Source of the DNA: Labrys okinawensis
GTDB taxonomy: Bacteria > Pseudomonadota > Alphaproteobacteria > Rhizobiales > Labraceae
Reading direction: 5' to 3'
Assembly (NCBI RefSeq): GCF_002982075.1
Contig: NZ_PUEJ01000004.1
Coordinates: forward strand, 186,001-250,000
DNA: 64,000 bases
Below the pieces are notes generated by a model. The model made no database searches. It was not told the DNA's origin and saw only the letters and a program-made list of their open reading frames with translations. The position numbers and the translations under genes are program-made. This document shows, piece by piece, positions 13,488 through 17,555 of this stretch (its first letter is position 1; each line of letters starts with the position of its first letter).

Positions 13488-15464
13488 ATGCGGATGGCCT
13501 GGTTGACCTGCCTGCTCCTCGCAGCCGGCCTTTCGATCGGAACGCCGGCCGCGGCCCAGATCAAGCTCGGCGTTGCCGGCCCCATGACCGGGCCGAATGC
13601 CGTCTTCGGCGAGCAGATGCGAAAGGGCGCCGAGGCGGCCGTGGCGGCCATCAATGCCAGGGGCGGCATTGCAGGCCAGCAGGTCGAGATCGTCATCGCC
13701 GATGACGTTTCAGACCCGAAGCAAGGCGTGGCGGCCGCCAACAAGCTTGCATCCCAGGGCGTCAAGCTGGTGGTGGGTCATTTCAATTCGGGCGTCACCA
13801 TTCCGGCCTCCGAGATCTACGCCGAGCGCGGCATGATCATGATCTCTCCTTCCGCCACCAACCCCAAGGTGACCGAGCGCGGCTTGTGGAACGTCTTCCG
13901 CGTCACCGGCCGTGACGACCGTCAGGGCGGGGTCTGGGCCGACTATGCCGCCAAGAACTTCAAAGGCAAGCGAGTAGCCATCCTCAACGACAAGACCATC
14001 TATGGCCAAGCGCTGGCAAATAGTGCCCGCGATGCCTTCGCGCGGGCGGGGTTCAAGCCGGTGCTGGAGGCTGGCGTCGACGTCGGCGAGAAGGACTATT
14101 CCGCCATCGTCGATCGGCTGGGCAAGGCGCGGGCCGACCTTCTGCTCTGGGGTGGCCTCTATACCGAGGCGGCGCTCATTCTCAGGCAGCTGCGCGAACG
14201 GGGCCTCAACACCGTGCTGTTTTCCGGCGACGGCCTGATCGGCAGCGAGTTTCCCGCCATCGGCGGCGATGCCGTGATCGGCACACTGATGACCTTTCCC
14301 CCGCCGCCCAGCCGGAACCCCGCGGCCGCCGACGTCCTCCGTACCGCGCCGGGCCTCGTGGACGGCTACACCCTCTACGCCTATGCCGCGGTACAGGTTT
14401 TCCAGCAGGCTGCTGCCCAGGCCGGGACGCCCGAACCACGGCGCATGGCGGCGGTGATGCACGCCAGCGCCCCCTTCCACACGGTGCTCGGCGACATCGC
14501 CTTCGACGCCAAGGGTGACCGTACCACGCCCGATCTGATCGTCTATCGCTGGCAGAAGGGCAGCGACGGCACCATCACCTACGAGCCGGTCGAACCGCAG
14601 ACCCCGATCGCTGCGGCCGGCACCCCGCCGGACAATGCCGCTGACGAGATCGAAACGGCCCAGGATACGCCAAAGCCCGCGCCCGCCGTCGAGACGGCTC
14701 CCCTTGCCGAGACCGTCCCCGTCGCCAAGGCAGCCCCCGTCGTCGACACGCCCGCAGATGCGCCTCGCCGCGTCGCACTGGTCATCGGCAATTCGGCCTA
14801 TCGTTCGGTGTCCCGGCTCCCGAATACCCTGCGCGATGCCGATCTCATCGGGCAGGCTTTGCGCCAGACGGGTGTGGACGACGTCACGGTTGCGCATGAT
14901 CTCGATCGCGCCGACATGATCGCCGCTCTCAAAGCCTTTGCGCGCAAGGCCGACCAGTCGGACTGGGCCGTCATCTATTATGCCGGGCACGGCATCGAGG
15001 TGGACAACAGGAACTACCTGATCCCGCTGGACGCCGTGCTCGAATCCGATCGCGACGTTCCCGACGAGACCATTGCGCTCGATCGGGTGATGAGCACGCT
15101 CGACGGCGCACGCAAGCTCAAGCTCGTGGTGCTCGATGCCTGCCGCAACAATCCCTTCGTCGCGCAGATGAAGCTGAGCGTCGCGAGCCGTTCGATCGAT
15201 CGCGGCCTTTCGCGTGTGGAGCCGGCCGGCGCCACCCTGGTCGTCTATTCGGCCAAGGAAGGCACCACGGCCGCCGATGGAGATCAGGCCAACAGCCCCT
15301 TCGCCCTCTCCCTCGCCAGGCGCCTGGTCGAGCCGGGCGTCGAGATCAACAAGATCTTCCGCTTCGTGCGCCAGGACGTGCTCGACGTCACCGGCAACCG
15401 GCAGGAACCCTATGTCTACGGCTCGCTGCCGCCCACGGATTTCTTTTTCGTCTCACCGCAATGA
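13488..15464 (+). CDS. Exported LivJ-type ligand-binding domain fused to caspase-like (C14) peptidase
   Basis: 658 residues. A Sec signal peptide (MRMAWLTCLLLAAGLSIGTP, cleavage after AAA near 22-23) is followed by a full-length Peripla_BP_6 domain of the branched-chain amino acid (LivJ/LivK) class, residues ~24-365: IKLGVAGPMTGPNAVFGEQM, then IVIADDVSDPKQGVAAANKL and VVGHFNSGVTIPASEIYAER. A Pro/Ala/Glu-rich linker (~366-425) leads to a caspase-fold domain beginning RVALVIGNSAY (from about 427). The catalytic dyad is visible: H501 in YYAGHGIE and C552 in LDACRNNPF, with Asp two residues before the Cys as in metacaspases. AAGGAAG lies 6 bases before the ATG. No liv permease or ATPase genes are adjacent, so a sensor-protease role in the periplasm is more likely than transport; that is inference. 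Confidence 0.92.
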   Translation: MRMAWLTCLLLAAGLSIGTPAAAQIKLGVAGPMTGPNAVFGEQMRKGAEAAVAAINARGGIAGQQVEIVIADDVSDPKQGVAAANKLASQGVKLVVGHFNSGVTIPASEIYAERGMIMISPSATNPKVTERGLWNVFRVTGRDDRQGGVWADYAAKNFKGKRVAILNDKTIYGQALANSARDAFARAGFKPVLEAGVDVGEKDYSAIVDRLGKARADLLLWGGLYTEAALILRQLRERGLNTVLFSGDGLIGSEFPAIGGDAVIGTLMTFPPPPSRNPAAADVLRTAPGLVDGYTLYAYAAVQVFQQAAAQAGTPEPRRMAAVMHASAPFHTVLGDIAFDAKGDRTTPDLIVYRWQKGSDGTITYEPVEPQTPIAAAGTPPDNAADEIETAQDTPKPAPAVETAPLAETVPVAKAAPVVDTPADAPRRVALVIGNSAYRSVSRLPNTLRDADLIGQALRQTGVDDVTVAHDLDRADMIAALKAFARKADQSDWAVIYYAGHGIEVDNRNYLIPLDAVLESDRDVPDETIALDRVMSTLDGARKLKLVVLDACRNNPFVAQMKLSVASRSIDRGLSRVEPAGATLVVYSAKEGTTAADGDQANSPFALSLARRLVEPGVEINKIFRFVRQDVLDVTGNRQEPYVYGSLPPTDFFFVSPQ

Positions 15465-15513: not shown

Positions 15514-17028
15514 TCATGGATGCGTTGGTCCCGGCTGGCCGAGGCCCACCTCATCGAAATAGCGTTGCAGCAATGCCATCTCAGCGGAAGCAAGGATGGC
15601 GCCGACATAGCCATCGGGCCGCACGAGCACCCAATCGCCCGGCGTGAGACCATAGATCTCGCCGACATGGCCAGCATGGTCGAGAATGTCACCGCGTTCG
15701 CCGATGGAGTGGATATGCAGCCCACGGCGGGGCGGCAATGGCGCCTGATTTGCCTCGTAAGCCAACAGAGTCCAGTGCGCACCTTTGAACAGGTCGAACA
15801 GGCGCAGGGGCCGGCCGGCCGCCCCGCGGACCGGCGCGTCCGGCGCACGGTCTCCCGCACGCACGCCACCTTGTCGCGGCGGCCGCTCGATCGCCAGCGA
15901 CGACTTGGGATAACCGAGATCCAGCTGCTGCGTCTCGCGTCCGCGCCGTATCTCACCGCGCTTGAGATCATCCAATAATTTGGTGGAAAGCCCCAGCATG
16001 GACGCCGCGACGGGTCGGCGCTCCTCTTCATAGGTGTCGAGCAGTTGGTCGCCGGCACCAGCCAGAACAGCCGCCAGCTTCCAGCCCAGATTATAGGCAT
16101 CCTGCACGCTGGTATTGAGCCCTTGCCCGCCGGTCGGCGGATGCGTATGCCCCGCATCTCCAACCAGGAATGTGCGTCTGACGCGATATCGATCGGCGAG
16201 GCGGGCGTTCATGGCGTAGGCCGAAGCCCAGGAGACTGAAATCACCTGGATGTCGTCCCGGCCGGTGCGCTGCGCAACCATGGCATTCAGCCCCTCTGCG
16301 GAAAGGTCGACGTCGCCTTCCAGCGGAACCGGCCCCTGTATCTGGAACAGATCGGTTCCCGCGAGCGGACAAAGCGAGATCTGCCGCTGCATGTCCTTTT
16401 CGGCAAAACGATGCCAGACATCGCGGCTCAGACCGGTCAGGGAAACGTCGGCGACGATGGCGCGAACGCCGAGCGTCCTGCCCGGGAAGCCCACCTCGAG
16501 CGCCTGGCGCACGAAACTGCGGCCGCCATCGGCGCCGACAAGCCAGCGCACGCGAACATTCTCCTCGCCCTCTTTGCCGGCGATCCGCAGGGATACACCG
16601 GCCTCGTCCTGGTCGAAGCCAACCAGTTCAGAGCCAAACTCGGGGCAGTGTCCCAATTCTGCAAGACGATCGCGCAGAATGCTCTCGGTCAAGAACTGCG
16701 GCAGCATCAACGGGATGCGATAAGGTTCGGCCGGTAATGAAGCCTGCTGCTCCATGATCCCGGAATCGCTGTAACTGCCATCATCATGATGGCTGCGCTG
16801 CGGCGGATAGGGGCCGCCCGCCGCAGCGAGGCGGTCGAGAACGCCGAGATCCTCGAAGATCTCCAGCGTTCTTGGCTGGATCCCCTTGCCGCGTGAGCCG
16901 TGAAACGGCTTGTCCATTTTCTCGATCAGCCGGAAGGACACTCCGCGCCGCGCGAGATCGATAGCCAGCGTCAGCCCGGCCGCCCCCGCCCCGCAAATGA
17001 GAACATCGACTGCGAATTGCTCTGTCAT
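15514..17028 (-). CDS. FAD-dependent aromatic monooxygenase (PheA/TfdB-type)
   Basis: A 504-residue class A flavoprotein hydroxylase. It has the N-terminal FAD-binding motif CGAGAAGLTLAIDLARRG (residues ~11-28), the substrate/NADPH-region motif GADGGRSFVR, the second FAD motif FLVGDAGHTHPPTGGQGLNT, and a C-terminal thioredoxin-like domain ending in PDGYVGAILAS. These enzymes hydroxylate phenolic or polyketide-like aromatics with NAD(P)H and O2. The ATG at 17028 follows GGAGGCGACC, itself inside the shared regulatory region. The gene is divergent from a MarR regulator and flanked by its probable operators, so induction by an aromatic ligand is expected. The exact substrate is unknown. Confidence 0.9.
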   Translation of the reverse strand: MTEQFAVDVLICGAGAAGLTLAIDLARRGVSFRLIEKMDKPFHGSRGKGIQPRTLEIFEDLGVLDRLAAAGGPYPPQRSHHDDGSYSDSGIMEQQASLPAEPYRIPLMLPQFLTESILRDRLAELGHCPEFGSELVGFDQDEAGVSLRIAGKEGEENVRVRWLVGADGGRSFVRQALEVGFPGRTLGVRAIVADVSLTGLSRDVWHRFAEKDMQRQISLCPLAGTDLFQIQGPVPLEGDVDLSAEGLNAMVAQRTGRDDIQVISVSWASAYAMNARLADRYRVRRTFLVGDAGHTHPPTGGQGLNTSVQDAYNLGWKLAAVLAGAGDQLLDTYEEERRPVAASMLGLSTKLLDDLKRGEIRRGRETQQLDLGYPKSSLAIERPPRQGGVRAGDRAPDAPVRGAAGRPLRLFDLFKGAHWTLLAYEANQAPLPPRRGLHIHSIGERGDILDHAGHVGEIYGLTPGDWVLVRPDGYVGAILASAEMALLQRYFDEVGLGQPGPTHP

Positions 17029-17040
17029 GGTCGCCTCCAT

Positions 17041-17105
17041 ATGTGTAATATGCACATAATAGGAGAGCAAAGATGCCGTCAACAGATAATGTGCAAAATA
17101 CACAT
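17041..17105. promoter_or_regulatory. Two MarR-type operators flanking the monooxygenase promoter
   Basis: Two 17-bp dyads share the consensus ATGTGYA-N3-TRCACAT: 17041-17057 and, in the opposite orientation, 17089-17105. Between them, on the minus strand, a -35 TTGACG (17077-17082) and a -10 TATTAT (17056-17061), spaced 15 bases apart, would drive the monooxygenase gene. The left site overlaps the downstream edge of the -10 and the right site abuts the -35. The right site lies inside the first codons of marR if its start is 17073. Confidence 0.7.
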
Positions 17106-17555
17106 ATGAGTGCCTTGCTGCGCGAGCTTCACGGCGCTCTGATCGATATCGCCAGCGTGATGAACCGCCCCCAGCGCGACGAGGCGATGGTGCGCGCAGC
17201 CGGCATCTCCCTCGATCGTGCTCTTTTTCCACTGCTGGTCATGGTGGAACGCCTCGGCCCCATCGGCGTGGTGGAACTGGCCGACCGCGTGGGGCGGGAT
17301 TACACGACGGTCAGCCGGCAGGTGGCAAAACTCGAAAGCCTCGGCCTGGTGGACCGTCAAGGCAGCCCCGCCGATCGTCGCGTGCGCGAGGCGACCATCA
17401 CGGCCAAGGGGAAGGCCATGACCGATCTGGTCGATGCCGCCCGCGAGAAGATGGGCCGTGCGATCTTTGCCGGATGGGAGCAGGATGATGTTCGCGAACT
17501 GGTGCGGCTCATGCGCAAGTTTGCGGATGACATCAATGCGACCTCTCCGGAATGA
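17073..17555 (+). CDS. MarR-family transcriptional regulator
   Basis: A 160-residue winged-helix regulator. The DNA-binding region is GVVELADRVGRDYTTVSRQV (about 67-86), followed by the MarR wing GLVDRQGSPADRRVREATIT. It should bind as a dimer to the two 17-bp dyads found here and respond to a small aromatic ligand, controlling the divergent monooxygenase. Start choice matters: the ATG at 17073 has a good GGAGAG site 6 bases upstream, whereas the in-frame ATG at 17106 (MSALLRELHG) has none. With the first, one operator lies within codons 6-11 and could act as an autoregulatory roadblock; with the second, it lies just upstream. Confidence 0.92.
   Translation: MPSTDNVQNTHMSALLRELHGALIDIASVMNRPQRDEAMVRAAGISLDRALFPLLVMVERLGPIGVVELADRVGRDYTTVSRQVAKLESLGLVDRQGSPADRRVREATITAKGKAMTDLVDAAREKMGRAIFAGWEQDDVRELVRLMRKFADDINATSPE

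What the first reader, a model, noticed from the sequence alone, without database searches (positions are those of the whole stretch)
13488..15464. Exported fusion of a LivJ-type amino acid-binding domain to a caspase-like peptidase
One continuous reading frame joins a signal peptide, a complete branched-chain amino acid-type binding domain, a Pro/Ala/Glu linker and a caspase domain with intact H501 and C552. Both parts are recognisable families; the combination in the periplasm is not a standard transporter component, and there are no livHMGF genes nearby. A plausible reading is ligand-gated proteolysis outside the cytoplasm: nutrient or signal binding regulates a metacaspase-like protease. 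This would be a distinct sensing system rather than transport.
Basis: partly seen in the sequence, partly recalled or inferred. Interest (0 to 1): 0.85.

Follow-up and report, generated by a model that had tools for sequence, protein, structure and literature searches.

The report
Periplasmic amino-acid-binding domain fused to caspase
Three related Labrys bacteria carry an exported protein in which a GABA/proline-type amino-acid-binding domain has been joined to an intact caspase-like protease, probably so that a small molecule or a docking partner controls cutting outside the cytoplasm.

Summary
Window 13488-15464 (+) encodes one 658-aa protein: Sec-type signal peptide, complete Peripla_BP_6 domain, ~55-residue Pro/Ala/Glu linker, complete Peptidase_C14 domain with H501 and C552. 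It is not an artefact: two other Labrys genomes have the same fusion in the same gene order at 88-89% identity, and both domains are under purifying selection (dN/dS about 0.1). It is absent from two further Labrys genomes and was not found in 397 Hyphomicrobiales genomes or in class, phylum and plasmid samples. Trees put the binding domain inside Labrys LivJ and the protease inside a Labrys family of exported TPR-caspases, so the gene looks like a domain swap within the genus. The pocket is Atu2422-like (GABA/Pro/Ala/Val), not leucine-like. The protease models as a MALT1-like caspase fold with two acidic S1 candidates, which suggests cutting after Arg/Lys. The fusion lacks the single cysteine typical of its LivJ relatives, leaving the catalytic one alone. 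Ligand gating is plausible but untested; the predicted disordered linker argues against rigid coupling. Caspase plus Peripla_BP_6 is already reported in cyanobacteria, where C14 is generally N-terminal. New variant of a known kind.

The parts
13488..13556 (+). Sec signal peptide, residues 1-23 (cleavage predicted AAA|Q)
   Evidence: hydrophobic core followed by AxA, kept in Labrys KNU-23 and WJW; assigned from sequence, no signal-peptide program was available
13557..14582 (+). Periplasmic binding domain, residues 24-365, Atu2422-like pocket (F40, F99, N100, S101, T124, Y172, D248)
   Evidence: PF13458 E 8e-62; 3ip5 E 4e-112; these columns identical to Atu2422; VIA-align Z 42.8 to 3ip5
14583..14747 (+). 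Pro/Ala/Glu/Thr linker, residues 366-420, predicted disordered
   Evidence: pLDDT 31-36 in blocks of residues 371-420; in-frame length variation and dN/dS 0.35-0.49; Lys396 and Lys414 are its only basic residues
14748..15461 (+). Caspase-like peptidase domain, residues 421-658, dyad H501/C552, acidic S1 candidates D450 and D550
   Evidence: PF00656 E 5e-37; MALT1 E 2e-8 by sequence and Z 22.9 to MALT1 339-563; dyad invariant in homologues aligned

Best explanation
The protein is exported by Sec and works as a soluble periplasmic cysteine protease under the control of a small-ligand receptor domain. Shown by sequence: an Atu2422-type pocket is preserved, the caspase dyad and two acidic S1 candidates are preserved, and the two domains are joined by a long, probably flexible linker. 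Inferred: binding of a small amino acid (GABA, proline, alanine or valine) closes the receptor domain and changes what it associates with, either another copy of itself or a membrane partner such as a LivHM-type permease. That brings caspase domains together and activates them by induced proximity, as established for MALT1 and other caspases (general knowledge), after which they cut periplasmic targets behind Arg or Lys. Within Labrys this receptor domain stands where sister caspases carry TPR repeats, so the protease module appears to have been given a new input.
For: Same fusion in three species at the same locus; purifying selection on both domains with a relaxed linker. Pocket identical to Atu2422 at key positions, including F99 = F77; 3ipc is titled as the F77A mutant bound to leucine. 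Caspase domain models onto the MALT1 caspase fold, Z 22.9. The protease domain sits inside a Labrys TPR-caspase clade (100/99) and the receptor domain inside Labrys LivJ (99/92). The FR[TV]CGRDD cysteine, present in all 17 close LivJ-type SBPs examined and in 52 of 59 rows of the wider set, is Thr in all three fusions, leaving only the catalytic cysteine in the mature protein, as would suit a free thiol in an oxidising periplasm.
Against: No assay of binding, cleavage or coupling exists. The linker is predicted disordered, so direct allostery between cleft and active site is unlikely. The receptor clade has a long stem branch (0.6), so its ligand or role may have shifted. No partner gene was identified; the gene stands alone between oppositely transcribed neighbours. 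MALT1 homology does not prove proximity activation here.
Confidence: 0.42

Rival explanations
1. Targeting, not gating: the binding domain only anchors the protease to a LivHM-type permease or another envelope partner, and ligand state does not control cutting.
For: Flexible-looking linker suits a tether; the genome has a livHM operon with SBPs of the same clade elsewhere; sister caspases carry TPR repeats, usually protein-docking modules, in the same place.
Against: The ligand pocket is kept unchanged although a pure docking surface would not need it.
Confidence: 0.27
2. Ordinary uptake SBP with a passenger: the protein delivers its ligand to LivHM, and the caspase domain acts on itself, cutting the linker and releasing a free SBP.
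For: The linker's only basic residues are Lys396 and Lys414, and a PVAK motif occurs in all three orthologues; predicted Arg/Lys preference.
Against: The genome already has two livJ genes beside livHM; the caspase domain is under strong purifying selection; a short recurrent motif in a low-complexity linker is weak evidence.
Confidence: 0.1
3. Degraded sensor: the binding domain has drifted, binds nothing relevant, and persists only as a folded cap or inhibitor of the caspase.
For: Long stem branch of the fused SBP clade.
Against: dN/dS 0.12-0.14 in the SBP part and retention of the pocket columns.
Confidence: 0.12
4. Assembly or frame artefact that joins two genes.
For: None found.
Against: Found in three separate assemblies, one a complete chromosome, at the same locus with in-frame linker indels.
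Confidence: 0.01

Closest known systems
Cyanobacterial orthocaspases with Peripla_BP_6 (8 of 473, PMC8283722) or ANF_receptor (Cyanothece PCC 7424, PMC3501461)
   Same: A C14 domain and a type-1 periplasmic-binding domain in one polypeptide
   Different: There C14 generally lies N-terminal to the accessory domain; here an exported SBP is N-terminal and C14 C-terminal, and both halves derive from Labrys genes. The cyanobacterial sequences were not inspected here.
Labrys exported TPR-caspases (e.g. L046, L047, L049)
   Same: Sister protease domains, signal-peptide-like N-terminus, C-terminal C14
   Different: N-terminal part is TPR repeats instead of an SBP
Atu2422, GABA/Pro/Ala/Val-binding SBP of Agrobacterium (3ip5, 3ip9, 3ipc)
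   Same: Fold and pocket residues, about 50% identity
   Different: Atu2422 is a free SBP of the Bra ABC transporter, without a protease, and has the cysteine that the fusion lacks
MALT1 paracaspase
   Same: Caspase fold over most of the domain, DxC acidic S1 residue
   Different: Cytosolic human signalling protein with death and Ig domains
Secreted caspase with YARHG domains in Bradyrhizobium (A5ECX2, PMC3355149)
   Same: Exported alphaproteobacterial C14 with an extra envelope domain
   Different: YARHG instead of SBP, and C-terminal; Labrys has a YARHG-caspase as well (L094)

Membership tests
Peptidase C14 (caspase-like) | Pfam model match over its gathering score | tested here: met
   128 bits against a cut-off of 21.4
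Peptidase C14 (caspase-like) | His/Cys catalytic dyad | tested here: met
   H501 and C552, conserved in orthologues and invariant in the homologues aligned
Peptidase C14 (caspase-like) | caspase-hemoglobinase fold | tested here: met
   AF2 model pTM 0.85; Z 22.9, rmsd 2.5, 199 aligned, to MALT1
Peptidase C14 (caspase-like) | proteolytic activity | not testable with these tools
   needs an assay
Orthocaspase/paracaspase with basic P1 preference | acidic S1 residues | tested here: met
   D550 two before C552 and D450, both aligned with Asp of MALT1 and invariant in homologues; that they set Arg/Lys preference rests on literature (PMC8283722) and memory
Orthocaspase in the strict sense (p20 only) | lack of a p10 part | tested here: inconclusive
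   model aligns through MALT1 residue 563, i.e. into the p10 region, but the stretch between the two parts has low pLDDT
LivJ-type (HAAT) solute-binding protein | Peripla_BP_6 domain with type-1 PBP fold | tested here: met
LivJ-type (HAAT) solute-binding protein | gene in or near a livHMGF operon | tested here: not met
   LivH and LivM have no match in the window; the operon is on another contig
LivJ-type (HAAT) solute-binding protein | free-standing SBP | tested here: not met
   fused to C14 in all three orthologues; delivery of ligand to a permease was not tested
Atu2422-like GABA/Pro receptor | pocket residues including Phe77 | tested here: met
   ligand binding itself not testable here

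The most novel reading that the evidence does not exclude
A one-protein periplasmic signalling device: a GABA/proline-class receptor domain that switches on a paracaspase-like protease outside the cytoplasm, built by putting a solute-binding domain in the place of TPR repeats in an expanded family of exported caspases.
Probability: 0.35. Interest if true: 0.8.

Novelty: new variant of a known kind. Interest (0 to 1): 0.55.

Why it matters
Exported caspase homologues are numerous in some Alphaproteobacteria, yet what controls them is largely unknown. Here the likely input domain belongs to a class whose ligand can be predicted from its pocket, so 'what turns on an exported caspase?' becomes a direct experiment on one protein. 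It is also a clear case of domain swapping within one genus, in which a receptor stands where TPR repeats stood, with the loss of a cysteine that would otherwise compete with the catalytic one.

Tried and rejected
Artefact of two genes: rejected by three assemblies with in-frame linker indels. Wider occurrence: apparent 2-kb matches in Niveispirillum, Azospirillum and two MAGs are tandem SBP genes, not fusions; the long open frames around SBPs checked in other Hyphomicrobiales have no C14 match. Plasmids: no record covers 80% of the protein and there is no near DNA match. These searches could miss strongly diverged fusions: the class and phylum scans used strict E-values, and only three candidates per genome were scored in the large scans. 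Corresponding site in G004: the MFS-to-DUF1697 interval holds neither the fusion nor the FAD monooxygenase and MarR genes; in G003 only the MFS gene was recovered, near a contig end. Literature: no paper in the library pairs the exact names Peripla_BP_6 and Peptidase_C14, but a table spelled 'Peripla BP_6' does. The original Atu2422 structure paper was not held. Cysteine parity: 36 of 44 exported C14 proteins had an even number of non-catalytic cysteines, but the signal-peptide trimming was crude, so this is only suggestive.

Full report
The frame 13488-15464 (+) is a single 658-residue protein. Pfam finds Peripla_BP_6 at 24-358 (E 8e-62) and Peptidase_C14 at 427-647 (E 5e-37). H501 sits in AGHG and C552 in DACRN. 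The N-terminus has the form of a Sec signal peptide with an AxA site, and no later stretch is hydrophobic enough for a membrane helix.

It is not an artefact. Labrys sp. KNU-23 (complete chromosome) and Labrys sp. WJW carry the same fusion at 88-89% identity, in the same gene order: helicase-like gene, MFS transporter, fusion, FAD monooxygenase, MarR regulator, DUF1697, glycerophosphodiesterase. Nei-Gojobori dN/dS is 0.12-0.14 for the binding domain, 0.06-0.12 for the caspase domain and 0.35-0.49 for the linker, which differs in length by whole codons.

Distribution is narrow. Of five genomes of the genus held, three have it. No other fusion was seen in 397 Hyphomicrobiales genomes, in stricter scans of class and phylum samples, or in plasmids. 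Strongly diverged fusions could be missed by these scans.

Origin. A tree of C14 domains places the three fusions inside a Labrys clade of exported TPR-caspases (100/99); a tree of binding domains places them inside Labrys LivJ proteins (99/92) on a long stem. The own genome has 17 C14 matches; those listed begin with signal-peptide-like N-termini, and several carry TPR, Sel1, weak peptidoglycan-binding, YARHG or LprI domains. The simplest reading is that an SBP copy took the place of TPR repeats in front of a caspase domain within the genus. The same genome keeps a livHM operon with two tandem livJ genes elsewhere; LivH and LivM have no match in the window.

Binding domain. The nearest solved structure is Atu2422 of Agrobacterium (3ip5, E 4e-112; Z 42.8). 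Key pocket columns match Atu2422, including F99 at the position of F77. 3ipc is titled as the F77A mutant bound to leucine, so a Phe here suggests small ligands rather than leucine. Atu2422 takes GABA, proline, alanine and valine (PMC5924552). Which residues line the pocket rests on my knowledge of the LBP/LIVBP structures.

Protease domain. The domain alone models with pTM 0.85 and aligns with MALT1 339-563 at Z 22.9 (rmsd 2.5 over 199 residues). D550 and D450 align with Asp residues of MALT1. Preference of caspase homologues for basic P1 residues is reported in PMC8283722.

Linker and coupling. AF2 gives pLDDT below 50 for residues 370-423; the model rests on only 14 sequences. Together with the relaxed dN/dS and the indels this points to a flexible tether, which does not favour rigid cleft-to-active-site coupling but fits induced proximity or docking.

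A cysteine clue. The 17 close LivJ-type SBPs examined all have a cysteine in FR[TV]CGRDD or a near form of it; it is present in 52 of 59 rows of the wider set, and all three fusions have threonine there. The mature fusion has only the catalytic cysteine. I infer selection for a free thiol in an oxidising compartment, which would support both export and catalysis. It is a single change on one branch, so it is suggestive only.

Known precedents. Peripla_BP_6 is listed for 8 of 473 cyanobacterial orthocaspases, with C14 generally N-terminal to accessory domains (PMC8283722). ANF_receptor with metacaspase is reported in Cyanothece (PMC3501461). A secreted YARHG-caspase is known in Bradyrhizobium (PMC3355149). 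The combination is therefore a new variant, not a new kind.

Conclusion. The architecture of the protein and its evolutionary history are well supported. Ligand-controlled proteolysis is the best single explanation, at about 0.4, with docking without gating as the main rival.

Noticed in passing
L055 4565-11831 (own genome, contig C19): Three tandem exported TPR-caspases, two with a weak N-terminal peptidoglycan-binding match (PG_binding_1); a local expansion of the same protease family.
   Followed up: partly
L082 3182-5986 (own genome, contig C20): A 934-aa C14 protein in which the catalytic DxC motif was not found, a candidate pseudo-orthocaspase.
   Followed up: no
Labrys genomes G000-G004: 8 to 23 C14 matches per genome, many for a bacterium; those examined in the own genome look exported.
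   Followed up: partly
window 15514-17555: A FAD monooxygenase and a divergent MarR gene lie beside the fusion and are also missing at the corresponding site in G004, so they may have come or gone together with it.
   Followed up: partly
L059, L062, L066, L068, L071: Tandem pairs of LivJ-like SBP genes in Niveispirillum, Azospirillum and two MAGs.
   Followed up: no
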